From Hamiltosporidium tvaerminnensis (lineage: Eukaryota > Microsporidia > Dubosqiidae): 64,000 bases of DNA. Each line of letters starts with the position of its first letter. The first letter of the stretch is position 1. Location of the stretch: the NCBI GenBank assembly GCA_022605425.2, contig CM061255.1, positions 372,001 through 436,000 on the forward strand, written 5' to 3'. Shown piece by piece: positions 1,300-62,238 of this stretch. A program made the position numbers and the translations under genes. The notes under the pieces are model-generated. The model was not told the origin of the DNA and made no database searches. It saw only the letters and a list, made by a program, of their open reading frames with translations.

Positions 1300-1599
1300 C
1301 ACTCTTGGCGTTATCCAACGAGAACCACGTGGAGGTGGTGATCATCTCTCGTCATGAGTGCTTGCTAGCCTCATCCACTCGCGATCTTGTGGATTACAGC
1401 TGCAGCACCCAAGCACGTCGTCTTCATGCTAGATAGTACAGTAGGGCCACGTTGAAGCTTAGAGGCCTTCAGCTCTTCCGTGCCAGGACGTTGCTTAGCC
1501 CGTACCTTACCAGATATAGGCACGACAAGAGGTCCTGCAGATTCGTTCCTTTCGTACTAGCATCTGCTCCCTTAGTACCGTAGCAGTAGTGTAAAACTA

Positions 1600-1637
<38 letters not shown>

Positions 1638-1741
1638 TGTTAGTGGGTGAACAATCCAACACTAGGTGCCTTCTGCTGCACCATGATAGGAAGAGCCGAC
1701 ATCGAAGAATCAAAAAGCAGCGTCGCTATGGTCGCTCGGCT

Positions 1742-1773
<32 letters not shown>

Positions 1774-2049
1774 ACGTCACCCATTGCTAGATGCTCTGTA
1801 AGCAATGGGATCGCTAGGCCTGGGTTTCCCCTCGTATTACCGTGTAGTAATACGTCAGGGTGGCTTTTGCCCTTGGACTACACCCTCGGTTTCTCTCCGA
1901 AGTTAGCCACCCTTAGGCCATCTGCGTTGTAGTCTAGCAGATGTACCGCCCCAGTCAAACTCCCCATCTGACAAATACGGGTCGCTTGCACAGCTAGTGG
2001 TCTTTCAGTTGCCCCACCTTGCTACAGCTGCACAAGACCCCGGCGTCAC

Positions 2050-2086
<37 letters not shown>

Positions 2087-2183
2087 GCATAGCCAAGACC
2101 GTTCCCTTGGCTCGTGGGTTCGCAGGTTGTTAGTCGGGACAGTGGGAATCTCGTTGCTCCTTTCGTGCGCGTCACTAATTAGG

Positions 2184-2237
<54 letters not shown>

Positions 2238-3900
2238 CTGCGTATACAGCCCGACCTGTCTTAACAGCTGGGCACTGGGCAGAATTCACTTTGTGTCCAC
2301 GTACTACACCACCACAAAGCTATGTTTTTATTAAACAGTCGGATTCCCCGTAACTAAAAGTTCTAATTCCTTAGAGCTAATCCTTTTCCCGAGGTTACGG
2401 ATCTAATTTGCCGAATTCCCTAACTAACGTTTGTCCTATCGCTTCCGGTATACACCGTACGGAGCCCTGCTGCGGTCGGTACGGTCATCTAGGTCATAAA
2501 GGTATCTTTTCACGGATCCCAGCTAAGACAATTGCATATGCCTGTATTGCTCTGTACAACACGCTACATACAGTACTGCTACAAGGAATGGGTACCTCCT
2601 TGTTGTCGTGCCTAAGACGTAAACACCATATTTACTGTTGCCAAATACCTAGATGGCTCGGGAATATCAACCCGATTCCCTGTCGAGATCTCAGGACCGG
2701 CTAACCTTCTCCTTATTAAATCTTAGAAGAACCCTTCTCCTGAAGCCTTCGCGATTCACACACGAATTGTAACTACTACCACCAAGATCAGCACTAGTGT
2801 ATGCTCCACTTTACCTCACGGTAAACCTTCTGCACATACACCACGCCCATCTACCTATAAGTACTGCATCGGGTCTGGCCTTGTACCGTCCATTTTCGGC
2901 GCACATGAATTCGGTAGGTACGTTGCAACACGTTTCTTACCGGATGCCAACCTCCATGGCCACCGCCCTACTGTCACAATTCATCTACGGCCTTAAGAAA
3001 AACCAGATTAGGCCCCTTATCAGTACGTCAGGTTGATCCCTCTTCGCACGTCCTGCTTACCAGAACGCGCCCACTAGACACATATATAATCGCTATTCTT
3101 TAGTACAAGAATAACACGTACACGTTCGCAGTTCGTCGGTATGTGGAGATTGCTCCCCTTTCATCCCGCCGTTCCTCTACCGCATAATACTAAATAACTT
3201 GTGTCTGCTGTCCTGAGAGACATTTCGATGGGAACCAGCTACCCGGCTGTTCGATTGGTCTTTCGCCCCTACACCCAGCTCAAACCATCGATTTGCGCGT
3301 CAGAACAAGTTTAGGTCCTCCACCATCCTTTCGAATGGCTTCAACCTGGCCAGGTGTAGTTCACAGCCCTTCGGGTCGCATCCGAACAGCTATATCTGCT
3401 TTCGCTACGCTTAAAGGAAACCCCCCTTTAACTTGCTATGCAGATGCACTCCTTGGTCCGTGTTTCAAGACGGGTCCTGTTATCAGGATACTCAATACAA
3501 TTTCACGTCTTTGCACTTTTTAGCTTTTCACCTTTCCATCGCTGTACTATTACGCTATCGGTCTCCGCTCATATTTAGCCTTAGATGGAACCCACCACCT
3601 CTTCAGGCTGCATTACCAAGCAACCCTACTCTGCCCATTACTCGTCACTACGGGGCTATCACCCTCTATGGCTTACCTGTCCCGGTAATTCGTTACGACG
3701 ATCTTAACAATGCCCGGAGGCTTACATTCGGGGCTATTTCTTGTTCGCTCGCCGCTACTACAGAAATCCTAGTTAGTTTTTGTTCCTCCCCTTAATAATA
3801 TGCTTAAGTCCAGGGGGTAGTCAGGCATTTACAAATGCCGTTCGGCCTTAGTTCTCGGAAACTATTCCGGCCTTCCTCGGATACGGAGCCAAGTGATCCC
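1300..3900 (-). rRNA. Large-subunit (LSU) rRNA, with fused 5.8S-like 5' end
   Basis: LSU rRNA of the cytoplasmic ribosome, read on the minus strand, about 2.6 kb, which is short for a eukaryote and normal for microsporidia. The 5' end reads GGATCACTTGGCTC (3900 downwards), like the start of 5.8S. About 88 nt later comes the conserved LSU 5' core GACTTAAGCATATTATTAAG (3809-3790). No second spacer separates them, so 5.8S is part of LSU as in other microsporidia. The sarcin-ricin loop reads AGTACGAAAGGAAC (1558-1545). The 3' boundary at about 1300 is set from the composition change and is approximate. The small ORFs read on the plus strand across this gene are spurious. The gene follows the SSU in one transcription unit. 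Confidence 0.93.
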
Positions 3901-3945
3901 TTGTATGAGTTTAAAATGAAAAAACTACACATTAAAAGTACTATC
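3901..3945 (-). other. Internal transcribed spacer between SSU and LSU rRNA
   Basis: About 45 bp of AT-rich sequence between the SSU 3' end and the 5.8S-like start of LSU. It is the only spacer in the unit, as expected for microsporidia, which lack ITS2. Boundaries are good to a few bases. Confidence 0.75.
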
Positions 3946-5250
3946 ACTGATCCTGCTGCAGGTTCTCCTACAGCAACCTTGTTACGACTTGTATCCAATC
4001 TAATCCTACGTCCTCAGAAGGAAAACCCTCTTCGAACATAGCACCATCTTAGATAACGACGGGCGGTGTGTACAAAGAACAGGGACGCAGTCGTCGCCCG
4101 TTAGTGACACGCGACTACTAGGAATTCCTGGTTCATGCGTCCATTACAGAACGCAATCCCAACCGAGTTATCCTTTATCTTTACAATATACCTCTAGAAA
4201 TAACATTGTAGTGCGCGTGCAGCCCAGAACATCTAAGGGCATCACAGACCTGTTATAGCCCCCTCCTTCCTGAAACTTATAGTCCCCAGTCGCCGTAGCT
4301 GAGGGTCTCACACATTACAGCAATAAACCTAAAAGTCACCTCACATGTTGTGAACGGCCATGCACCACTTAGTCGTACTCATCAAAGATTCGTCATACAA
4401 CTGGCCCTGGTAAGTTGTCCCGCGTTGAGTCAAATTAAGCCGCACACTCCACTCCTGGTGGTGTCCTTCCGTCAATTTCTTCAAGTTTCAATCTTGCGAT
4501 CGTACTATCCCCATAGCCCATATACTTGATTTCTCGTGGGTACCACTACGTAACACCCAGTTGGCATAGTTTACGGCCGGAACTACAGGGGTCTCTAATC
4601 ACCTTTGCTCCTCCGGCTTACGTCCTTGATCACCGGAAACGTACTGGACGACAGCTTTCGCTTCGGTTTGTCCTACGTAGGTCGTCAACTTTCACCTCTC
4701 GCTACGCAATACAGTCGCCCTCTTCCGCTCCTACATGCTAACCTAGAATGCCAATACACTCCATGAAGAAAGTGTCTTCTAGCATCCCTGTCAACACTGA
4801 CTACGGACCTTTTAAATGCAGCAATGCACTATGACACTCCTGGAGCTGGAATTACCGCGGCTGCTGGCACCAGACTTGCCCTCCAGTCAATCACCGGTAT
4901 TCTACCCCGGTTACAAAATATACGTCTCATAACTGCCTCTCTCCAATTGGGCAAGTTTCGCGCCTGCTGCTGTCCTTAGACCTGGTAGCCGTTTCTCAGG
5001 CTCCCTCTCCGGAATCAAACCCTGATCCCCCGTACCCGTTAAAGCCATCGTACGCCCTTACCGTACGATAAAACTGATGGGTCGGCGTCTTACTCGTGTT
5101 ATTAGCCACAGTTTCCCGCGGTTATCCTTCCTACACGATTAAATAATCACCGTTCTACTGAGCCGTTCGCAGTTCCACTTTCGCTTCACCAGACTTGCAT
5201 GGCTTAATCCCAGAGACAAGCATCCTCGTCAGGCAGAATCAACCTGTTGC
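3946..5250 (-). rRNA. Small-subunit (SSU) rRNA
   Basis: SSU rRNA on the minus strand, about 1.3 kb. The 5' end reads CAGGTTGATTCTGCCTGACG (5247 downwards), the standard microsporidian SSU start. The 530 loop GTGCCAGCAGCCGCGG is at 4870-4855. The 3' end has AAGTCGTAACAAGGTTGC (3990-3973), followed by CCTGCAGCAGGATCAGT. The short length with these universal blocks retained is typical of Microsporidia, which lack several eukaryotic expansion segments. It lies upstream of the LSU gene with a spacer of about 45 bp. Confidence 0.97.
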
Positions 5251-10400: not shown

Positions 10401-11118
10401 CTTAGGAGAAGGATAATAACCATAAAAAAACTTTCTGCTTGGCAAAAAACAGATGATTTAATATATGAAATGATTGTTTGGGTTTTTGGTGGTAATAAAG
10501 CCACACTAAATTTTTGGTTGGTTCATCAGAGTTATTAAGAGAAAGAGGAAATCTAATAATCTTGAACCCTTTTTTACAAATTTATTTTGCAGTTTTTTAT
10601 GTAACTAAGTTAGAACTCAAGCTTATGCTTGTATGTAATTTCATCGAAAAGCAAGAGATACTAGACTTATCCGGATTAGAATACTTAAGGTCTGGGAGGT
10701 ATAAAATTAAAATTATTTGATGCCAAGAGTTAAGTAGCGATAATATCTGTTGGTATGACATTACACTTTCTAGGTGGTCAGATGTAAGTCTCTGAAATAT
10801 ATCTTAGCTAGAAATTTTTTGGGTTCGGAAATTGTAAGAAGATGAAATTCTGCATAGTCTTGGGAAGCTCAGGGTTGATTTCAACCTAGGTAACACTCCA
10901 TGAAACGAACATGAACGAACTGTGGAACTGCCTCGCATATTAATTAGGTTCTACACATCTTTTAGATGAAAAGGTTTGAGATATAAGTATCGTAGGATGT
11001 ACCGACAGTGTGATATTTTAGCAGTTATTTATCTAAATTTAGAACTGCGTAAATGCCATGAAAACAATCTAACATTTGTCACTGTTTTTTAAAAATATCT
11101 GCTATTTTTGAATAAAAG
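10401..11118 (+). mobile_element. Family A retroposon, old full-length copy
   Basis: Diverged copy of the roughly 720-bp dispersed family. It keeps the 5' block (ACTTTCTGCTTGGCAA), the middle block (ATATATCTTAGCTAGAA) and the 3' block (AGAACTGCGT... to TTTTGAATAAA). It is flanked by the 11-bp direct repeat TTTATTAAAAA (10390-10400 and 11119-11129), a candidate target-site duplication, although such an AT-rich repeat is weak evidence alone. The small ORF inside it (10514-10720) is not conserved between copies. Confidence 0.75.
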
Positions 11119-16044: not shown

Positions 16045-16760
16045 TTTTTTTTACAATTGCATTGAAACTTTCTGCTTGACAATGAGTATCTTAAATTGAT
16101 GTAAATATCATTATTTAGACTCTTTTGAGAATCAAAGCAAACTACGTATTCTGTCTTCAATTTGAGTTTCTATAGAGAGTAGGATGTCTACAAAACCGAA
16201 AAACCATTTCTAATGTCTGTTTTGTAGCTTTTTATGTAGATAGACGTAAAATGCAGCCAAAATTGTAGACAATAGTCATGTCTAAGGCTTTATGCGTAGC
16301 ATTTCTCATTCGGGTTTGAAGACTTAGCCCTGAGTATGCTAAAAACTTAATGTTTAAGAATCTATGAAGGCTAAGAATCGATTAACTACTTCTGGTATGG
16401 ATTGTAAGGTCTAGGTGGGATATATGTTGGTCTCCGAAATATATTTTAGCTGTATGTCTATAAGTTCACAAAATGTAGTGTATACGAAAATTCTGCTGGT
16501 CATGATAGTACTTAAGTCTGGTTTTTACTTACATCACATGACAAATAACCTATATTGACGAACACTGGGCAAAACCCGTGACCATTAATTTGTTTACATG
16601 GTTTTTAGATTAATGGCTTTGTAATATAGGTTTCTACAGAATACTGATGAAGTTTCAAGAAGCAGTCATTTATTTTAAACCTAAAACTATGTTCATTTCC
16701 TAAAAATAATTTACTATATTCCGCTTTTCTAAAAATATGTGTTTTCTAATAAATAAAATA
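16045..16760 (+). mobile_element. Family A retroposon, highly decayed full-length copy
   Basis: Order and spacing of the family A blocks are retained: AACTTTCTGCTTGACAATGAGT near 16066, TTGAAGACTTAGC near 16315, GTCTAGGTGG near 16410, and the 3' block ending TAATAAATAAA near 16758. Many substitutions mark it as an old insertion. No flanking duplication is visible and the ends are approximate. Confidence 0.7.
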
Positions 16761-17279: not shown

Positions 17280-17413
17280 ATAACTCGAAATTATAGGAAA
17301 TAGGCCTATAGATCCGTTTGGTTTATATTCGGCTAAAATGTAAACATTTATTCCCGAACAATTCTACGCATTCATTTCTAAACAAAAAGTTTTTAAGGTG
17401 GTTATCTTCCCTC
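17280..17413 (-). mobile_element. Family A 5'-end remnant
   Basis: The plus strand reads AAACAAAAAGTTTTTAAGGTGGTTATCTTCCCTCCACT at its right end, which is the reverse complement of the family A 5' terminus with changes. Upstream (17280-17370) weaker matches to the next 100 bp of the element continue. The rest of the element is missing. Confidence 0.5.
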
Positions 17414-17841
17414 CACTCTTAAAGAATCATACTGGGTATAAATTTAAACCTAAACATAAAACTGATGAATTATAGCTATTATGTTAAATACTAAACCAAG
17501 GTTCTTATTTAATACATCACATTTATTTTTGGAGTTTAGAATCAAGCATTTGTTTTATGTTAGGAGATAAACATGATACTCATTGTATTTCATCGATAAT
17601 GCAATTTGAATTGCTTTAACCTGAACATGTTTTTTATATTTATAATCTGTTAAATTTTAATATTTAAATAATCTTTCTAAAAGCATACAAGCTGTTCTAG
17701 GCATTTGCTTTCACCGAAAGTTATTTACTCGCTGTTGTAATGCAACTTTCGTGATTCTGTCGGTTTCGTTAATTAATTTATTTTGGATTTAAAGTGAATA
17801 TTTTATACATATCTATAATTTTTATAAATCACAATAATAAA

Positions 17842-18574
17842 CGTACTTTATTTAAAAGTATCACATCTTTTTTAAAATATGGGCAAGTGTTACATTTGTT
17901 TTCATGATATTAACGCAGTTCTAGGTTTAACATAAATGACTGCTACCCCAAAACTCTATCAGTAACCCCTGCGATACCTACGTCCCAAAGTCTTTCATCT
18001 ACCAGGTGTGTAGAACCTAATTAATAGGCGAGGCAGTTGCCCGGAGTTCGTTAATGTCCGTTGCATGGAGTGTGATCGAAGGCCGAAGCCCTCCTTGCCT
18101 CTCCCAAGACTATGCAGCATCCCCACTTACTCTACACTTTCTGAACCCAATAAACTTCTAGCTAAGATATATTTCAGAGATTTACATGGGGTCCACCTAG
18201 ACAGTGCAATATCATACCAACAAGTATAACCTGCTACTTGGTTCTCCCAGCTTTAAATGGTTTTTATTTTTATATCTCCCAGGCGCTAAGTCTTCTAACC
18301 CAAGTGAGCAAGGCTAAGTTTCCATGCTTTTACATGGCAATTACCTACATGTCAGCTGCGGTCTGCAATCTGGTTACATAAAAAACTACAAATAAATTTA
18401 TAGAAAAAGTTTCTCCATTTCTTAGACCTCTCCGCTTCATAACAACACCCATAGAACAACTGAAGATATAGTGTGGTTGTATTCCCACCAAAAATCCAAA
18501 CAATGACGTCATACCAGTTTCACACACTCATTGCCAAGCAGAAAGTTTTTTATGTGGCTATCCTCTCTCCACTA
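17842..18574 (-). mobile_element. Family A retroposon, young full-length copy with target duplication
   Basis: Well-preserved copy, 733 bp, on the minus strand. It is flanked by the 11-bp direct repeat ACAATAATAAA at 17831-17841 and 18575-18585. The 5' end (AGTGGAGAGAGGATAGCC) is at the right and the 3' end (...CTTTTAAATAAAGTACG) at the left. An ORF at 18345-18527 reads into the element, but indels in other copies break this frame, so it is not a conserved gene. The core contains GGCTTCGGCC, a UUCG-capped hairpin. Confidence 0.88.
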
Positions 18575-26306: not shown

Positions 26307-27026
26307 GTGAAGATAACCCCATAAAAAACTTTCTGCTTGGCAATGAGTGTGTGAAACTGGTCTGATGTCATTGTTTGGATTTTTGGTGGGAATAGAACCA
26401 CACTACATCTTCGGTTGCTCCATGGAGTTGTTATGAAGAGGAGAGGTCATAAAAATGGAGAAACTTTTTCTACAAATTTATTTGTAGTTTCATATGTAAA
26501 AAGATTACAAACCGCAGCTAAAATTGTAGGTAATTGCCATTAAAAAGCATGGAAACCTAGCCTTGCTCACTCAAGTTAGAAGACTTGGCGCCTGGGAGAT
26601 ATAAAAATAAAAACCATTTAAAGCCGGGAGAACCAAGTAGCAGGTTATACTTGTTGGTATGATATTGCACTGTCTAGGTGGACCCCATGTAAATCTCTGA
26701 AATATATCTTAGCTAGAAGTTTATTGGGTTCAGAAAGTGTAGAGTAAGTGGGGATGCTGCATAGTCTTGGGAGAGCCCGGGGAGCTTCGGCCTTCGATCA
26801 CATTCCATGCAACAGACTTTAACGAACTCCGGGTAACTGCCTCGCCTAGTAATTAGGTTCTACACACCTTTTAGATGAAAGGGTTTGGGACGTTGTTATC
26901 GCAGGGGGTACCGATGGAGTGTTGGGGTAGCAATTAACTTTCTTATACCTAGAACCGCGTTAGTGTCAGCAAAACAAATCTAACACTTGCCACTATTTTA
27001 AAAAGATGTGGTACTTTTGAATAAAA
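26307..27026 (+). mobile_element. Family A retroposon, full-length copy
   Basis: Well-conserved plus-strand copy from GAAGATAACCCCATAAAAAAC to GGTACTTTTGAATAAA. It contains the palindrome CTACAAATTTATTTGTAG, the block CTTAGCTAGAAGTTTATTGG and the hairpin region GCTTCGGCC. The first dozen bases of the family 5' end are altered and a flanking duplication is not clear (only a GTATA-type match), so the insertion is probably older than the copies at 17842 or 47810. The ORF on the other strand (26180-26401) overlaps its 5' end and is not a gene. Confidence 0.85.
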
Positions 27027-35767: not shown

Positions 35768-36498
35768 CTTTATTTAAAAGTATCACATCTTTTTAAAATA
35801 GTGGCAAGTGTTATATTTGTTTTCATGAATTAACGCAGTTCTAGGTTTAACATAAATAACTGCTACCCCAAAACTCCATCAGTAACCCCTGCGATACCTG
35901 CGTCCCAAAGCCTTTCATCATCCAGATGTGTAGAACCTAATTAATAGGCGAGGCAGTTGCCCGGAGTTCGTTAATGTCCGTTGCATGGAGTGTGATCGAA
36001 GGCCGAAGCCCCCATCTGGGCTCCCCCAAGACTATGCAGCATTCCCACTTACTCTACACTTTTTGAACCCAATAAACTTCTAGCTAAGATATATTTCAGA
36101 GATTTACATGGGGTCCACCTAGACAGTGCAATGTCATACCAACAGGTATAACCTGCTACTTAGCTTTCCTGGCTTTAAATGGTTTTTTGTTTTGTATCTC
36201 CCAGGCGCTAATTCTTCTAACCCGAATAAGCAAGGCTAGGTTTCCATGCTTTTACATGGCAATTACCTACATGTTCAGCTGCGGTCTGCAATCTGGTTAC
36301 ATAAAAAACTACAAATAAATTTGTAGAAAAAGTTTCTCCATTTCTTAGACCTCTCTTCCTCATAACAACTCCATGGAGCAACCGAAAATGTAGTATGGTT
36401 TTATTCCCACCAAAAATCCAAACAATGATCTCACACCAGTTTCACACACTCATTGCCAAGCAGAAAGTTTTTTATGTGGTTATCCTCCCTCCACAATT
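35768..36498 (-). mobile_element. Family A retroposon, full-length copy with target duplication
   Basis: Minus-strand copy, 731 bp, flanked by GCACAGAAA at 35759-35767 and 36499-36507 (9 bp exact, with C/T then T further left). It retains the 5' end (CCTCCCTCCAC in plus-strand reading), the CTACAAATAAATTTGTAG palindrome and a stem-loop-rich core (GGCCGAAGCC). The reading frame seen in some copies is broken here by an indel relative to the copy at 47810, arguing for a non-coding element. Confidence 0.87.
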
Positions 36499-37854: not shown

Positions 37855-38576
37855 CTTATTTATGTAAAAGCACCACATCTTTTTTAAAATAGTGGCAAGT
37901 TTTATATTTGTTTTCATGACATTAACGCAGTTCTAGGTTTAACATAAATAACTGCTACCCCAACACTCCATCGGTAACCCCTGCGATACCTACATCCCAA
38001 AGCCTTTCATCATCCAGGTGTGTAGAACCTAATTAATATGAGCGGCCGTTGTGATTTCTTAAATTTCCGTTGCATGGAGAGAAATAGAAGACCGAAGCTT
38101 TCCTGGGCATTCCAAGATTATGCAGTATTTCCACCTATTCTACACCTTTTTAACCCAATAAACTTCTAGCCAAGGTATATTTAGAGAAACACATGTGTTT
38201 TACTTAGACAATGCAATGTCATACTAACAGGTATAACCTGCTACTTAGCTCCCCCGGCTTTAAATGGTTTTATTATATCTCCCAGGTATTAAGTTTTCTA
38301 ACTTGAGTGAGCAAGGCCAAGTTCTCATCTATTTACATGAAAATTACCTACAAGTTCAGTGCGGTCTCCGATCCGGTTACATAAAAAACTACAAAATAAA
38401 TTTGTGGAAAAATTTTAGCCATTTCGTAGACCGCTCCTCTTCATACAAACATTCATAGAACAACCAAAGACACAATATGGTTTTATTCCCTACAAAAACC
38501 TCAATATGCTTTTCACATCCATTTGACATACTCATTATCAAGCAGAAAGTTTTTTGTGTAGTTATCTTGCCTCCAC
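37855..38576 (-). mobile_element. Family A retroposon, moderately decayed copy
   Basis: Minus-strand copy with the family landmarks (AACGCAGTTCTAGGTTTAAC near 37924, CCCAATAAACTTCTAGCCAAG near 38154, AAGCAGAAAGTTTTTTGTG near 38540). The core around 38040-38130 has several substitutions. No clean flanking duplication, so the ends are approximate. The plus-strand ORF at 38264-38458 lies inside it and is not a gene. Confidence 0.82.
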
Positions 38577-46470: not shown

Positions 46471-46731
46471 TTGATTGTATTGTTATTTTTAGTAAATATG
46501 AAAGATAGAGTTAATAACAATATATTATTAGATATTATTACTATAAGAATTATATTGGTAAGTTGGTAGTTATTAGTTTTTTAGAATTATATTGTTGATT
46601 TTTTGCTATTATTAACTTAGCATTTTTGTATTTTTAGTAATATCTTGTCTTTAAGTTTTATATTTTATTTTTTTATTCTATGAATACGAGAAGATTTGTA
46701 TTTTAATTTAATTAATTTTATTTTTTAAAAA

Positions 46732-47237
46732 TTTTAATTTAAATAATAGAAGAAATAAATGTCTAAGTTACTTGTAATATTGTATATACATTTTAATTTA
46801 AATAATTGAAGAAATCAATGTCTAAGTTACTTGTAATATTGTATATACATTTTAATTTAAATAATGGAAGAAATTAATGTCTAAGTTACTTGTAATATTG
46901 TATATACATTTTAATTTAAATAATTGAAGAAATCAATGTCTAAGTTACTTGTAATATTGTATATACATTTTAATTTAAATAATGGAAGAAATTAATGTCT
47001 AAGTTACTTGTAATATTGTATATACATTTTAATTTAAATAATTGAAGAAATCAATGTCTAAGTTACTTGTAATATTGTATATACATTTTAATTTAAATAA
47101 TTGAAGAAATCAATGTCTAAGTTACTTATAATATTGTATATACATTGTAATTTAAATAATAGAAGAAATCAATGTCTAAGTTACTTGTAATATTGTATAT
47201 ACATTTTAATTTAAATAATGGAAGAAATCAATGTCTA
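46732..47237. repeat. 59-bp tandem array, eight copies plus a partial
   Basis: Units of exactly 59 bp start TTTTAATTTAAATAAT at 46732, 46791, 46850, 46909, 46968, 47027, 47086 and 47145, with a truncated one at 47204. Variation is confined to a few positions (TTGAAG/TGGAAG/TAGAAG and ATCAATG/ATTAATG). Alternating TTGAAG and TGGAAG variants suggest that two-unit blocks were duplicated. Confidence 0.93.
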
Positions 47238-47447
47238 CGTTTTATATTTTAATATAAAAAAAATTTTAATTTTTTGGGTAAAATAAAATAGAGAGTGTGT
47301 ATATTTAAAGAAGATATATATTTGAAGTTATAAATGTAAAGAGGTGGTATATATGGAGAAATGAATTTGACTTGTTGATATTATGTGTATATTGGGGTTT
47401 TAACCATGAATATAATATACTTAAGATAATATTTAGTTATAGGTGTT

Positions 47448-47556
47448 ATTTTATAACAAAACCTAGAACTGCGTTAATGTCATGAAAACAAATATAACAC
47501 TTGCCACTGTTTTAAAAAGATGTGATACTTTTAAATAAATTAAATTTTATAACAAA
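47448..47556 (+). mobile_element. 5'-truncated family A insertion with perfect 13-bp target duplication
   Basis: Only the last 83 bp of family A are present (47461-47543, ACCTAGAACTGCGTTAATG to TTTTAAATAAATTAA). They are flanked by the exact direct repeat ATTTTATAACAAA at 47448-47460 and 47544-47556. Loss of the 5' part with an intact duplication means the insertion itself was truncated, as in target-primed reverse transcription. Confidence 0.88.
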
Positions 47557-47797
47557 TATCTCCAAACTTTTTGGATCGAAGACTAGACTACATTTCTTCT
47601 AAAAAAGCCTTGCATATTGCCGTGATATTCTAGAAGAAAGCTAAGGTTAAAGTGCGTCTTTAACAAGGAGGTCGTCTTTCTGCTAACTGTTCCTTTTTTA
47701 TTATGAAAATAATTGTTTTTATAAATAAAATAATTGTCTTTATTGGTTTTATTCATCATGACACACCCCCCTTTTCTATTTTAAAAATATAAATAAT
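47557..47797. other. Short intergenic stretch between two family A insertions
   Basis: About 240 bp, with a locally GC-richer part (47580-47690). Not recognised. Confidence 0.4.
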
Positions 47798-47809
47798 ATC
47801 ACACATACC

Positions 47810-48538
47810 TAGTGGAGGGAGGATAACCACAAAAAAAACTTTCTGCTTGGCAATGAGTGTGTGAAACTGTTGTGAGATCATTGTTTGGATTTTTAGTGGG
47901 AATAAAACCACACTACATCTTCGGTTGTTCCATGGGTGTTGTTATGAAGAGGAGAGGTCTAAGAAATGGAGAAACTTTTTCTACAAATTTATTTGTAGTT
48001 TTTTATGTAACCAGATTGCAGACCGCAGCTGAACATGTAGGTAATTGCCATGTAAAAGCATGGAAACCTAGCCTTGCTCACTCGGGTTAGAAGACTTAGC
48101 GCCTGGGAGATATAAAAACAAAACCCATTAAAAGCCGGGAGAGCTAAGTAGCAGATTATACCTGTTGGTATGACATTGCACTGTCTAGGTGGACCCCATG
48201 TAAGTCTCTGAAATATATCTTAGCTAGAAGTTTATTGGGTTCAGAAAGTGTAGAGTAAGTGGGAATGCTGCATAGTCTTGGGGGAGCCCAGGGGGGGCTT
48301 CGGCCTTCGATCACACTCCATGCAACGGACATTAACGAACTCCGGGCAACTGCCTCGCCTAGTAATAAGGTTCTACCCACCTGGTAAATGAAAGGCTTTG
48401 GGACGTAGGTATCGCAGGGGTTACCGATGGAGTTTTGGGGTAGCAGTTATTTATGTTAAACCTAGTACTGCGTTAATGTCATGAAAACAAATATAACACT
48501 TGCCACTATTGTAAAAAGATGTGATATTTTTAAATAAA
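47810..48538 (+). mobile_element. Family A retroposon, best-preserved copy, 12-bp target duplication
   Basis: A 729-bp plus-strand copy flanked by the exact repeat ATCACACATACC at 47798-47809 and 48539-48550. It defines the ends: 5' TAGTGGAGGGAGGATAACC and 3' TTTTTAAATAAA. Its GC content is visibly higher than the flanks. Landmarks are the palindrome CTACAAATTTATTTGTAG (about 47982), CCATGTAAAAGCATGG (about 48049) and GGGCTTCGGCC (about 48295). The plus-strand open frame at 47857-48090 starts with GTG and is disrupted in other copies, so I do not call it a gene. It sits next to the truncated hAT-like relic. Confidence 0.92.
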
Positions 48539-48550
48539 ATCACACATACC

Positions 48551-49384: not shown

Positions 49385-50093
49385 AAATGAATATTGCATC
49401 ATTCTAAAAAAATGCCGTATTTTATGATCCTTTAATGAAATAGCGCATTTCTAGTTTAAGCATTAATAAGTTTTCACTAAAACTTTGTTGCTCTTACTTA
49501 AATACTTAAGTCTAAAGCCTATACCAAAATAGAATATAATTTATTTAATGAGAGAGGCAGTTTCTTTGGTTAAGTTAATAACCATTGATTGGAGTATTTT
49601 CGAGGGTTAGAAACCATACTTGCTTCGCTCGGGATAAGCAGAATTCTCATATAATCAGCATATTCCAACTAAATAGACTTCCAACTAATATATAAGGAGG
49701 ATTAGTGAAGTCTACATCGACGTTGCAATGTCATATAACAGCCATAACTTAGTACTTACGCTTGCTCACTCTTAAAATGTATGTTTTTTCTATTTCCCGG
49801 GTGCCAAGTCTTCTAACATTAGACATCAAAGCTATTTTTATGTTTTTACATCGCAGATACCTACAGATTAAATGGTTGTTTGCAATCATTTTACAGGAAA
49901 AACTAAAAGAAATCTGTAAAAATTTTATTCCTTTTTTTTAAATTCTCTTCTCTTTGTCAAACTTGCGTTTGAACAGTTGAAAACGTAATGGGGTTTTCAC
50001 CTTACATAAATCAGCAGAATTGTTTTTGCATCAATTTTACATAATCATGGCTAAGCAGATGTTTCATAATGCGGTTATTCTCGCTATATGTCA
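49385..50093 (-). mobile_element. Family A retroposon, highly decayed copy
   Basis: Landmarks survive in order on the minus strand: GTCTACATCGACGTTGCAATGTCATA near 49709, CCCGGGTGCCAAGTCTTCTAAC near 49797, TAAGCAGATGTTTCATAATGCGGTTATTC near 50050. The 3' part (49385-49560) is barely recognisable. No flanking duplication. Confidence 0.65.
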
Positions 50094-54093: not shown

Positions 54094-54829
54094 CAGTGGA
54101 TGGAGGATAACCACATAAAAACTTTCTGCTTGGCAATGAGTGTGTGAAACTGGAGTGAGGTCATTGTTTGGATTTTTGGTGGGAATACAACCACACTAAA
54201 TCTTCGGTTGTTCTTTGGGAGTTGTTATGCGGAGAAGAGGTCTAAGAAATGGAGAAACCTTGTCTACAAATTTATTTGAAGTCTTTTATGTAACCAGATT
54301 GCCGACTGCAGCTAAACATGTAGGTAATTTCCATGTAAAAGCATAGAAACCTAGTCTTGCTAACTCGGGTTAGAAGACTTAGCGCCTGGGAGATATATAA
54401 ATAAAAACCATTAAAAGCCGAGAGAGCTAAGTAGCAGGTTATACCTGTTGGTATGGCATTGCGCTGGCTAGGTGGACCCGCTGTAAATCTCTGAAATATA
54501 TCTTAGCTAGAAGTTTATTGGGTTCGGAAAGTGTAGAGTAAGTGGGAATGCTGCATATTCTTGGGGGAGCCCAGGAGGGGGCTTCGGCCTTCGATCACAT
54601 TCCATGCAACGGACATTAAAGAAAATAGTGCAACTGCCTCGCCTATTAATTAGGTTCTACACACCTGGTTAATGAAAAGCTTTGGGACGTAGGTATCGCA
54701 GGGTTTACCGATGGAGTGTTGGGGTAGCAGTTATTTATGTTGAACCTAGAACAGCGTTAATGACAGAAAACAAATATAAAACTTGCCACTGTTTTAAAAA
54801 ATATGTGATACTTTTAAATAAAGTCCCTC
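54094..54829 (+). mobile_element. Family A retroposon, young copy, 10-bp target duplication
   Basis: A 736-bp plus-strand copy flanked by AACTTCCACA at 54084-54093 and 54830-54839. The 5' end reads CAGTGGATGGAGGATAACC; the 3' end reads CTTTTAAATAAAGTCCCTC, with a few extra bases after the common AAATAAA terminus. It ends about 155 bp upstream of the Gle1-like start. The ORF 54682-54903 spans the element end and is not a gene. Confidence 0.9.
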
Positions 54830-60471: not shown

Positions 60472-62238
60472 ATGAAAATGACAAAACGAATATATTTTGT
60501 ATATTTTTCACTTTTCATGTTTTATGGTTTGATTGCATTTTGTTCAAGTGAAAGGCCAGTTGGTTGCAAGAAAAGATCAGAGGAAGACGATTCAAAGAAT
60601 ATATCACATCGAACAGTCAAAGGCAAGGAATATATTACCACGGGCCCTGTGAACCGAGACTATATGGATCAAAAAAATGAAACTTCGGAACTTACACCTA
60701 AAATAAGTAATACTAAATTAGATGAAAACAATGGGGCTTCGTCTGATGCATCAAAAAATCATATTCATACAGCAAAAACTTCTAAAACCTTTCCCATATT
60801 TAAAACGCGAATATTTTATAATACTAAATATTCTGATAGATATTCTTCACAGATGATACCTCACAGTACTACGGCATTTCTTAATACTACTAAACAAGAT
60901 GGTTTTGTTATAACTGCATCAAGATCTACAGATAAAACTATGAATTTATATGTACCAGAAAACAATAAATCCTTAACTTTAACTACAAATGAAACAAAAT
61001 ATAAAGAAAAAACAACAAAAACGCGTATTCCCAATTTTCAAGTTACAAATCGATATGAATTTTCACAAGTAAATCCAGTTTTAATTGGCGTGCATCAACA
61101 AAATATAATCACAAAATACACTTCGGACAGAACCTCTATATCTTCATATGATAGTTGGCAAAATAATTCAAATCCTCCCATAAATTCAACCGCGGTATCC
61201 TATCAAAACCTACCCCCGTATTATAATCGCCCATATATTCCTATAACACCAAAATACCCGCCTCCTCCACAATATATGATTACACCATCAAATATGAGTT
61301 TTTTTTCTTCTATGCCACCAAAATACCCGCCTCCTCCACAATATATGATTACACCATCAAATATGAGTTTGTTTTCTTCTATGCCACCAGGATGCCCGCC
61401 TCCTCCACAATATATGATTACACCATCAAATATGAGTTTGTTTTCTTCTATGCCACCAGGATGCCCGCCTCCTCCACAATATATGATTACACCATCAAAT
61501 ATGAGTTTGTTTTCTTCTATGCCACCAGGATGCCCGCCTCCTCCACAATATATGATTACACCATCAAATATGAGTTTGTTTTCTTCTATGCCACCAGGAT
61601 GCCCGCCTCCTCCACAAAAAATGATTACATCATCAAATATGAGTTTGTTTTCTTCCATGCCACCAGGATGCCCGCCTCCTCCACAATATATGATTACACC
61701 ATCAAATATGAGTTTGTTTTCTTCTATGCCACCAGGATGCCCGCCTCCTCCACAAAACATGATTACATCATCAAATATGAGTTTGTTTTCTTCCATGCCA
61801 CCAGGATGCCCGCCTCCTCCACAAAACATGATTACATCATCAAATATGAGTTTGTTTTCTTCTATGCCACCAGGATGCCCGCCTCCTCCACAAAACATGA
61901 TTACATCATCAAATATGAGTTTGTTTTCTTCTATGCCACCAGGATGCCCGCCTCCTCCACAAAACATGATTACATCATCAAATATGAGTTTGTTTTCTTC
62001 TATGCCACCAGGATGCCCGCCTCCTCCACAATATATGATTACACCATCAAATATGAGTTTGTTTTCTTCTATGCCACCAGGATGCCCGCCTCCTCCACAA
62101 TATATGATTACACCATCAAATATGAGTTTGTTTTCTTCTATGCCACCAGAATGCCAGCTTACTCAACAAAATATGATTCCATCCTTAGCTGTTAGTTCAA
62201 ATCCTTCTATACCTCTAAGATATCCTAATTATTATTAA
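60472..62238 (+). CDS. Secreted proline-rich tandem-repeat protein (spore wall/polar tube or host-interface candidate)
   Basis: A 588-residue protein with an N-terminal signal peptide (hydrophobic YFVYFSLFMFYGLIAF at about 8-23, cleavage near residues 24-26). A Ser/Thr/Lys/Asn-rich region follows to about 240. Then come thirteen near-identical 23-residue repeats, residues 259-557 (61246-62142), each of the form PPGCPPPPQYMITPSNMSLFSSM, with the motif NMS in every unit. A short tail follows. The first two units have KY, and later ones GC, giving one Cys per unit from unit 3 on. No transmembrane anchor is visible. Proline- and Cys-containing repeats with a signal peptide are typical of microsporidian polar-tube and spore-wall proteins, but there is no specific family match. 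An in-frame continuation after the stop suggests recent truncation. Confidence 0.82.
   Translation: MKMTKRIYFVYFSLFMFYGLIAFCSSERPVGCKKRSEEDDSKNISHRTVKGKEYITTGPVNRDYMDQKNETSELTPKISNTKLDENNGASSDASKNHIHTAKTSKTFPIFKTRIFYNTKYSDRYSSQMIPHSTTAFLNTTKQDGFVITASRSTDKTMNLYVPENNKSLTLTTNETKYKEKTTKTRIPNFQVTNRYEFSQVNPVLIGVHQQNIITKYTSDRTSISSYDSWQNNSNPPINSTAVSYQNLPPYYNRPYIPITPKYPPPPQYMITPSNMSFFSSMPPKYPPPPQYMITPSNMSLFSSMPPGCPPPPQYMITPSNMSLFSSMPPGCPPPPQYMITPSNMSLFSSMPPGCPPPPQYMITPSNMSLFSSMPPGCPPPPQKMITSSNMSLFSSMPPGCPPPPQYMITPSNMSLFSSMPPGCPPPPQNMITSSNMSLFSSMPPGCPPPPQNMITSSNMSLFSSMPPGCPPPPQNMITSSNMSLFSSMPPGCPPPPQNMITSSNMSLFSSMPPGCPPPPQYMITPSNMSLFSSMPPGCPPPPQYMITPSNMSLFSSMPPECQLTQQNMIPSLAVSSNPSIPLRYPNYY
61246..62142 (+). 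repeat. 69-bp coding tandem array, thirteen units
   Basis: Thirteen 69-bp units, phase-locked to the reading frame, with a decayed fourteenth at 62143. Two unit classes alternate: CAATATATGATTACACCA (QYMITP) and CAAAACATGATTACATCA (QNMITS). Both other long open frames across the array (minus strand 61221-61967; plus +2 frame 61392-62195) exist only because the periodic sequence lacks stops. Confidence 0.95.

What the first reader, a model, noticed from the sequence alone, without database searches (positions are those of the whole stretch)
47448..48550. A previously unnamed ~730-bp SINE-like retroposon family dispersed in a microsporidian genome
Seen: eleven related copies or remnants (about 10401, 16045, 17280, 17842, 26307, 35768, 37855, 47461, 47810, 49385, 54094) on both strands, sharing both ends and about 730 bp of non-coding, relatively GC-rich sequence. 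Five copies have direct repeats of 9-13 bp at their ends (17831/18575, 35759/36499, 47448/47544, 47798/48539, 54084/54830), each with different sequence; an AT-rich sixth flanks 10401. All end at a common AAATAAA-type 3' terminus. LTR solo copies would give 4-6 bp and hAT 8 bp duplications, so variable 9-13 bp points to target-primed reverse transcription. There is no ORF shared by copies. Inference: a large SINE or the non-autonomous partner of a LINE in the same genome.
Basis: partly seen in the sequence, partly recalled or inferred. Interest (0 to 1): 0.85.

Follow-up and report, generated by a model that had tools for sequence, protein, structure and literature searches.

The report
LINE-dependent SINE-like retroposon in Hamiltosporidium
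A short non-coding sequence of about 730 bases has been copied hundreds of times around the genome of a microsporidian parasite of water fleas, most likely by borrowing the copying enzyme of a larger mobile element that uses the same kind of insertion site.

Summary
All eleven copies or remnants were re-found: nine near-full copies, one 5'-truncated fragment inside a perfect 13-bp duplication, one internally deleted remnant. The genome is inferred to be Hamiltosporidium tvaerminnensis. Motif counts: 589 heads, 436 tails genome-wide, controls 0. Target-site duplications (TSDs) beat a mismatched-flank control in 38 of 45 copies; the 33 kept are 11-19 bp, median 13. Two pairs of copies at different loci differ at 1 of 727 sites, so movement is recent. 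There is no terminal repeat, long shared ORF, convincing Pol III promoter or poly(A) tail. It is a non-autonomous target-primed retroposon. Best partner: LINE A (801 3' ends), with an R2-type endonuclease, similar TSDs and the same insertion-site profile (r = 0.78; 0 of 2000 and 0 of 300 nulls). Both end TTAAATAAA, but no longer tail is shared, so the pairing is inferred. Strictly it is not a SINE; it works like Entamoeba EhSINE1. The paper searches made found no described microsporidian SINE.

The parts
47812..48538 (+). Copy A, full length (1.9% from consensus)
   Evidence: profile hit positions 1-727
47798..47809 (+). 5' TSD of copy A (ATCACACATACC)
   Evidence: 12 of 12 identical to 48539-48550
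48539..48550 (+). 3' TSD of copy A
47461..47539 (+). Fragment I: 5'-truncated copy, about the last 80 bp of the element
   Evidence: BLASTN 95% identity over 81 bp
47448..47460 (+). 5' TSD of fragment I (ATTTTATAACAAA)
   Evidence: 13 of 13 identical to 47544-47556
47544..47556 (+). 3' TSD of fragment I
35769..36494 (-). Copy B, full length (3.4%); TSD 13 bp, 1 mismatch
17847..18572 (-). Copy C, full length (5.2%); TSD 15 bp, 1 mismatch
54096..54822 (+). Copy D, full length (6.9%); TSD 13 bp, 1 mismatch
26308..27025 (+). Copy E, positions 7-727 (8.4%); no TSD above control
37859..38576 (-). Copy F, full length (16%); no TSD above control
10408..11116 (+). Copy G, positions 4-727 (24.5%); 11-bp A/T-only TSD
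16065..16756 (+). Copy H, positions 25-726 (33%); no TSD above control
49391..50085 (-). Copy J, positions 5-716, heavily decayed; no TSD above control
   Evidence: profile E 2.7e-54
17335..17416 (-).
   Evidence: BLASTN E 5.4e-11; TSD not tested

Best explanation
The element is a non-autonomous retroposon of about 727 bp (GTGGAGGGAGG...TTTAAATAAA). Its non-coding RNA is copied into new sites by target-primed reverse transcription with proteins supplied in trans, most probably by 'LINE A'. LINE A is a LINE with one open frame of about 1,250-1,300 codons and an R2-type restriction-like endonuclease. Proposed steps: (1) a source copy is transcribed, probably by RNA polymerase II, because there is no convincing Pol III promoter and internal T-runs would tend to end Pol III transcripts (inferred); (2) the LINE A protein binds the RNA near its UUAAAUAAA end (inferred); (3) its endonuclease nicks T-rich DNA at about TATT^TTT (site profile shown, enzyme inferred); (4) reverse transcription starts at or just after AAUAAA, not in a poly(A) tail (read from the junctions); (5) second-strand cleavage 11-19 bp away gives the TSD (TSD shown, order inferred). 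Early stops leave 5'-truncated copies (one shown, fragment I).
For: TSDs exceed the 99% mismatched-pair control in 38 of 45 copies with both ends found (47 given); 33 kept, 11-19 bp, median 13. LINE A: 22 of 26 (28 pairs given), 18 kept, 11-19 bp, median 14. Site profiles agree position by position (31 against 18 sites): T(-8)A(-7), T(-4), A(-3), T(-2)T(-1)^T; r = 0.78, 0 of 2000 shifted nulls as high; T at -2,+1..+3 is 0.63 and 0.68 against 0.42 elsewhere, 0 of 5000 nulls each. With random genomic sites passed through the same TSD caller (300 runs) the correlation is again never reached, with or without position -1, nor are the T and TA..TA enrichments; the -8..-3 part alone is reached in 6 of 300. 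Sites do not simply resemble the element's own 3' end (mean identity 0.40 against 0.40 shuffled; LINE A 0.41 against 0.43). A 79-bp 5'-truncated copy lies in a perfect 13-bp TSD. LINE A C-terminus: C972, C975, H984, C989, P1057, D1058, E1073 each in at least 85% of 32 aligned sequences (query plus 31 chosen from 120 listed homologues); model pLDDT 88.8; the only PDB matches at E <= 0.001 are seven R2 chains, TM 0.53-0.67. LINE A has 801 3'-end hits, control 0. L050/L055 and L059/L115 differ at 1 of 727 sites at different loci. Longest stop-free stretch 77 codons in the consensus, 49-105 in 48 copies. Longest exact match between the two ends 6 bases, inverted or direct.
Against: The tail shared with LINE A is only TTAAATAAA, six of whose bases are the ordinary poly(A) signal. 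The element usually has a G after AAATAAA (32 of 45), LINE A almost never (1 of 26). LINEs L014-L016, L018 and L020 read TTATTAAATAAAGTTT near their 3' end, closer to the element. Seven of 45 copies and 4 of 26 LINE A copies lack a TSD above control. Some TSD calls fall in local repeats (L048, L068, L085, L087, L093, L131). Of the 40 fetched copies 39 were the best database matches, so they are not a random sample. Only one clear 5'-truncated copy was seen. No other RT family was given the insertion-site test, so the profile might be common to several enzymes. No RNA data were seen.
Confidence: 0.7

Rival explanations
1. It is a TPRT retroposon, but the trans enzyme is another LINE of this genome (for example the ~915-codon LINE group, some of which read TTATTAAATAAAGTTT near the 3' end), not LINE A.
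For: That sequence resembles the element's AAATAAAG(T) more closely than LINE A's end does. Only 150 of 456 RT candidates were scored, so other LINEs may exist.
Against: The copies seen of that group look target-specific: L014-L016, L018 and L020 share their downstream flank (by eye), whereas the element is dispersed. The element's site profile matches LINE A. The ~1195-codon LINE (L010, L011) has a TTTTA/TTTA repeat in its 3' region, unlike the element; its exact end was not determined.
Confidence: 0.17
2. It is a classical Pol III SINE whose head has diverged beyond recognition.
For: Size class, variable TSDs and lack of coding capacity fit. Weak box A candidates (2 mismatches at 371; 3 mismatches at 37, near the head) and box B candidates (2 mismatches at 274 and 558) exist.
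Against: No tRNA by ARAGORN in the window; no relevant Rfam match up to E 10 (lowest E 0.28, far under its gathering score); no box A/B pair near the head; T5, T5 and T6 runs at 79, 165 and 188.
Confidence: 0.07
3. It is an internally deleted derivative of an autonomous element (as Trypanosoma RIME is of ingi).
For: Such pairs are known (PMC2996970); the element and LINE A end in the same nine bases.
Against: Consensus against 36 LINE/LTR pieces (107,564 bases): best E 0.064 over 23 bp. Those pieces hold ORF and 3' parts of the families fetched, not every 5' flank and not every family.
Confidence: 0.04
4. Solo LTR, MITE or other DNA-transposon derivative.
For: Short, dispersed and non-coding.
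Against: TSDs vary from 11 to 19 bp; the ends share no inverted or direct match over 6 bases, apart from a 12-base chance-level inverted pair that includes flank in copy A; a 5'-truncated copy has a perfect TSD.
Confidence: 0.02

Closest known systems
EhSINE1/EhLINE1 of Entamoeba histolytica (PMC2996970, abstract and results section read; PMC3118788 and PMC3716655, passages)
   Same: About 0.55 kb, 393 copies, no recognised small-RNA ancestor, no canonical Pol III boxes, TSDs of variable length, T-rich insertion sites, a LINE endonuclease that nicks at GTATT and is called restriction-enzyme-like in the title of a cited paper. EhSINE1 also varies by one to four 26-27-nt repeats; one copy here (L116) has four tandem heads of 23-26 nt.
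   Different: EhSINE1 shares about 70 bp of 3' end with its LINE; here nine bases are shared. EhSINE1's repeats are internal, here they are at the very 5' end. No sequence relation is claimed.
Dong-R4-type LINEs of microsporidia (Microsporidia sp. MB, PMC13174016; Nosema bombycis, PMC3614468; passages)
   Same: Abundant LINEs in microsporidia; LINE A has the R2-like endonuclease that I recall for the R4/Dong group (recalled, not from a call).
   Different: Clade membership of LINE A was not tested by a tree; the passages seen do not describe a dependent SINE.
ingi/RIME and similar trypanosomatid pairs (as described in PMC2996970)
   Same: Autonomous/non-autonomous pair in a unicellular parasite.
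   Different: There the short element is similar to its partner along its length; this element is not.
Fungal tRNA- and 5S-derived SINEs, e.g. AfuSINE2 of Aspergillus fumigatus (PMC5063351, start of abstract in search listing only)
   Same: Short non-coding retroposons with short TSDs (4-14 bp) in a fungus.
   Different: Those have tRNA- or 5S-related heads; none is detectable here.

Membership tests
SINE, strict definition (tRNA or 7SL homology and Pol III boxes, as quoted in PMC2996970) | Homology to a small Pol III RNA | tested here: not met
   ARAGORN 0 in window; Rfam gathering hits only rRNA genes; Rfam E<=10 scan of the element gives no relevant match
SINE, strict definition | Box A and box B internal promoter | tested here: not met
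   best matches have 2 mismatches at 371 (A), 274 and 558 (B); a 3-mismatch A-like site at 37; T5-T6 runs inside
Non-autonomous LINE-dependent retroposon (SINE in the broad sense) | Dispersed, short, no conserved long ORF | tested here: met
   589 and 436 motif hits; longest stop-free stretch 49-105 codons in 48 copies
Non-autonomous LINE-dependent retroposon (SINE in the broad sense) | Variable-length TSDs | tested here: met
   38 of 45 above 99% control; 11-19 bp in the 33 kept
Non-autonomous LINE-dependent retroposon (SINE in the broad sense) | 5'-truncated copies with intact 3' end | tested here: inconclusive
   one clear case in the window with perfect TSD; not counted genome-wide
Non-autonomous LINE-dependent retroposon (SINE in the broad sense) | 3' end shared with a LINE | tested here: inconclusive
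   only TTAAATAAA shared with LINE A; best alignment to 36 pieces E 0.064
Non-autonomous LINE-dependent retroposon (SINE in the broad sense) | Same insertion-site preference as a LINE | tested here: met
   r = 0.78; 0 of 2000 shifted and 0 of 300 simulated nulls
Restriction-like-endonuclease LINE (for the partner, LINE A) | RT plus C-terminal CCHC and PD-(D/E)XK-type endonuclease | tested here: met
   RVT_1; conserved motifs; fold match to seven R2 chains
Dong-R4 clade (for LINE A) | Phylogenetic placement | not tested
   no tree built
LTR retrotransposon solo LTR / DNA-transposon MITE | Fixed short TSD, LTR or inverted ends | tested here: not met
   TSD 11-19 bp; longest exact end match 6 bases

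The most novel reading that the evidence does not exclude
The reverse transcriptase of LINE A starts at the polyadenylation signal itself: a nine-base UUAAAUAAA end is enough for recognition, so that an unrelated GC-rich Pol II non-coding RNA could become a parasite of the LINE without copying a long LINE tail. Published Iso-Seq puts A[A/U]UAAA on average 20 nt before the commonest mRNA 3' ends (PMC10542269), yet the element stops at AAATAAA plus 0-14 bases and LINE A at AAATAAA plus a few bases, with A-runs of 0-2 and 0-5 respectively after it.
Probability: 0.3. Interest if true: 0.65.

Novelty: new member of a known kind. Interest (0 to 1): 0.46.

Why it matters
In the published annotation 25.45% of this genome, out of 39.56% interspersed repeats, is 'other', neither retroelement nor DNA transposon (PMC10542269); this family may be part of that. 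It would be a documented short-retroposon/LINE pair in a microsporidian and, beside Entamoeba, another non-Pol III short retroposon apparently served by a LINE with an R2-like endonuclease. It also gives a simple test of how little shared 3' sequence such an enzyme needs.

Tried and rejected
RNA structure: one copy folds little better than shuffles (z -1.24, 20 shuffles, 1 as good). RNAalifold on 10 copies has an unfavourable covariation term (+5.01); 26 of 140 predicted pairs do show a two-sided change in at least one copy, which I judge weak in decaying copies. No case for a conserved fold is made. Other cellular RNA: no Rfam support. Relation to rDNA in the window: best E 0.48. Sister subfamilies: the best 39 non-self matches of the 33%-diverged copy H are 66-70% identical and include main-family loci (40 of 533 candidates scored), so I read H as an old decayed copy. 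One search was meant to test the L070 remnant but its coordinates were taken on the wrong strand (most of the remnant, not exactly it), and alignment A2 has the same fault in that row; neither is used. LINE A tail within 30 bp before an element head: 3 exact cases, too few to argue a coupled mechanism. Target sites resembling the element's own 3' end: not supported. Presence in viral or prokaryotic contigs: one 22-nt pattern, 0 hits in each (records near this genome may be left out). Eukaryotic relatives could not be searched.

Full report
WHAT WAS CHECKED. The window is G000:C10:372001-436000 of a 21,638,905-base, 17-contig genome. Rfam finds a microsporidian SSU rRNA. Contig C3 is 1,444,059 bases, exactly the N50 listed for Hamiltosporidium tvaerminnensis in PMC12449221; that assembly is 21.64 Mb in 17 contigs (PMC10542269; passages of both papers). 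I take that as the organism; this is an inference.

THE COPIES. Profile search returns nine copies covering 702-727 positions of a 727-base model (same hits). BLASTN adds a 3' fragment at 47459-47539 and a head fragment at 17335-17416. Divergence from consensus in copies A-H is 1.9, 3.4, 5.2, 6.9, 8.4, 16, 24.5 and 33%, so the family has moved over a long time. The consensus is 42% GC against 27% for the window. Genome-wide, a 31-nt head motif has 589 hits and a 33-nt tail motif 436, each with up to 3 mismatches and reversed-pattern controls of 0. The tail motif holds an A-run of variable length, so the two counts are not directly comparable. If 589 copies were all full length they would be about 0.43 Mb, 2% of the genome.

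TARGET-SITE DUPLICATIONS. I took 40 fetched copies, 39 of them all the further near-full matches to copy A listed and one (L134) from the head-motif list, and seven window copies (A-G). Ends were located in 45 of 47 (not wE, wG). One scoring rule compared each 5' flank with its own 3' flank and with other copies' 3' flanks. 38 of 45 exceed the control's 99% level. The seven that do not are L059, L063, L116, L121, L130, L134 and wF. In L059 and L121 the 22-base head is present twice and in L116 four times, which moves the flank out of reach of the script; by eye L059 has a 13-base duplication outside its doubled head. After dropping scores under 11, repeats over 19 bases and one-sided short flanks, 33 copies have TSDs of 11-19 bases, median 13. 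In the window six of ten copies exceed the same level. The 5'-truncated fragment at 47461-47539 lies in a perfect 13-base duplication. That, with a constant 3' end, is what target-primed reverse transcription predicts; fixed-length transposase or integrase duplications do not fit. The two ends share no exact inverted or direct match longer than 6 bases.

JUNCTIONS. The 3' end is AAATAAA, followed in 32 of 45 copies by a G; the A-run right after it is 0 in 40 of 45 and at most 2. Some copies have up to 14 further bases before the TSD, the limit the script allowed. Iso-Seq in this species puts A[A/U]UAAA on average 20 nt before the commonest mRNA ends of highly expressed genes (PMC10542269). At the 5' end usually one or two extra bases precede GTGGAGG, ending in G in 21 of 33. 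A capped RNA could give this, but so could a source starting with G.

THE CANDIDATE PARTNER. A search for reverse transcriptases scored 150 of 456 candidates. The 30 loci fetched fall into a ~915-codon LINE group (10 loci; an APE endonuclease match in one of the three members tested, 22.6 bits, under its cut-off of 24.5), a ~1195-codon LINE (2 loci; APE match E 2e-11 in the one tested), one LTR element (L019) and a dominant family, LINE A (17 loci). LINE A starts 0-11 bases upstream of its ATG as judged by TSDs (limit of the script 12). Most copies read AACCCAGAATTTTATTAAATAAA followed at once by flank, 38-43 bases after the stop codon in 7 of 8 copies. It has 801 3'-end hits, control 0. Of 28 copies given, ends were found in 26, and 22 exceed the 99% TSD control; the 18 kept are 11-19 bases, median 14. 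Its C-terminus has a conserved CCHC motif and a PD...E pattern in homologues from other microsporidia and elsewhere. A model of residues 940-1170 (pLDDT 88.8) matches seven R2 chains at E <= 4.3e-6, TM 0.53-0.67; no other chain reaches E 0.001. LINE A therefore has an R2-type restriction-like endonuclease.

SHARED INSERTION SITES. With L120 (same flanks as L119) and L048 (placed in a tandem repeat) removed, 31 element sites and 18 LINE A sites were aligned at the inferred first nick. Both show T(-8)A(-7), T(-4), A(-3), TT^TTT. The T profiles correlate at 0.78; none of 2000 randomly shifted LINE A alignments does as well. T at -2 and +1 to +3 is 63% and 68% against 42% elsewhere in the same sites, 0 of 5000 nulls each. 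Because the TSD caller could itself bias the boundary, I passed random genomic sites with the same extra bases and TSD lengths through it 300 times: the correlation (with or without position -1), the T enrichment and the TA..TA enrichment are never reached; for positions -8 to -3 alone the correlation is reached 6 times. The sites do not resemble the element's own 3' end more than shuffled flanks do (0.40 against 0.40; LINE A 0.41 against 0.43). This is the main argument for LINE A as the enzyme source. The control it lacks is the same test on the other LINEs, of which too few copies were fetched.

AGAINST THE PAIRING. Apart from TTAAATAAA no sequence is shared: consensus against 36 LINE/LTR pieces gives a best E of 0.064 over 23 bases. 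The element's trailing G is seen in 1 of 26 LINE A copies, while LINEs L014-L016, L018 and L020 read AAATAAAGTTT near their end. Those share their downstream flank, so they look target-specific (by eye), unlike the element. I give 0.7 to the LINE A version and about 0.9 to target-primed retroposition in general.

IS IT A SINE? By the strict definition quoted in PMC2996970 no: no small-RNA head, no convincing box A and B, and internal T5-T6 runs. It works like EhSINE1 of Entamoeba, which by the authors' account also fails that definition and whose LINE endonuclease is called restriction-enzyme-like (title cited in PMC3716655 and PMC3118788). EhSINE1 shares about 70 bases with its LINE; this element shares nine. 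I file it as a non-autonomous LINE-dependent retroposon.

NOVELTY. A word search for 'SINE' finds nothing in the main texts of the H. tvaerminnensis genome paper and five related microsporidian papers (PMC10542269, PMC12449221, PMC7313128, PMC4202319, PMC12558613, PMC13174016). 'Hamiltosporidium' with 'SINEs' gives 0 papers; 'microsporidian', 'SINEs' and 'non-autonomous' together give 2, neither on microsporidia by title. Nosema bombycis has an undescribed 'SINE' line of 0.18% in a table (PMC3614468), so 'first in microsporidia' is not claimed. Supplements were not read, and subscription papers are mostly not held.

Noticed in passing
L059, L116, L121 (G000 C7:805907, C11:388482, C15:971325): The head hairpin GTGGAGGGAGGATAACCACATA is repeated in tandem at the 5' end: twice in L059 and L121, four times (23-26-nt units) in L116. 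Exact doubled heads occur at three places genome-wide, these three. Possibly template jumping at the RNA 5' end; compare the 26-27-nt repeats of EhSINE1.
   Followed up: partly
L067-L074 with L039-L046: LINE A has almost no 5' or 3' untranslated sequence: TSDs end 0-11 bases before its ATG (18 copies), and the element ends 38-43 bases after the stop codon in 7 of 8 copies.
   Followed up: partly
L014-L016, L018, L020 (also L012, L013, L017): LINEs of about 915 codons; five share their downstream flank, suggesting target specificity (by eye). They may be the rDNA-associated LINEs mentioned in PMC12449221.
   Followed up: no
G000 C1:350613, C5:628110, C14:86210: A LINE A 3' end lies within 30 bases upstream of an element head on the same strand: three exact cases, a fourth with a mutated LINE end in L056 (by eye).
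   Followed up: partly
60472-62238 +: 588-aa ORF with a hydrophobic N-terminal stretch (possible signal peptide, by eye) and a 69-bp (23-codon) Pro-rich repeat, 13.4 units, 96% matches.
   Followed up: no
46731-47241: 59-bp minisatellite, 8.7 copies, 96% matches, about 220 bp before fragment I.
   Followed up: no
L119 (C16:143591-144476) and L120 (C3:1432735-1433620): Identical element copies (0 of 726 differences) with identical flanks where shown on two contigs: probably a segmental duplication. C5 matches at 654895/661627 and 680078/686815 are spaced 6732 and 6737 bases apart.
   Followed up: no
1352-5249 -: LSU and SSU rRNA genes of a microsporidian rDNA unit at the window's left end.
   Followed up: no
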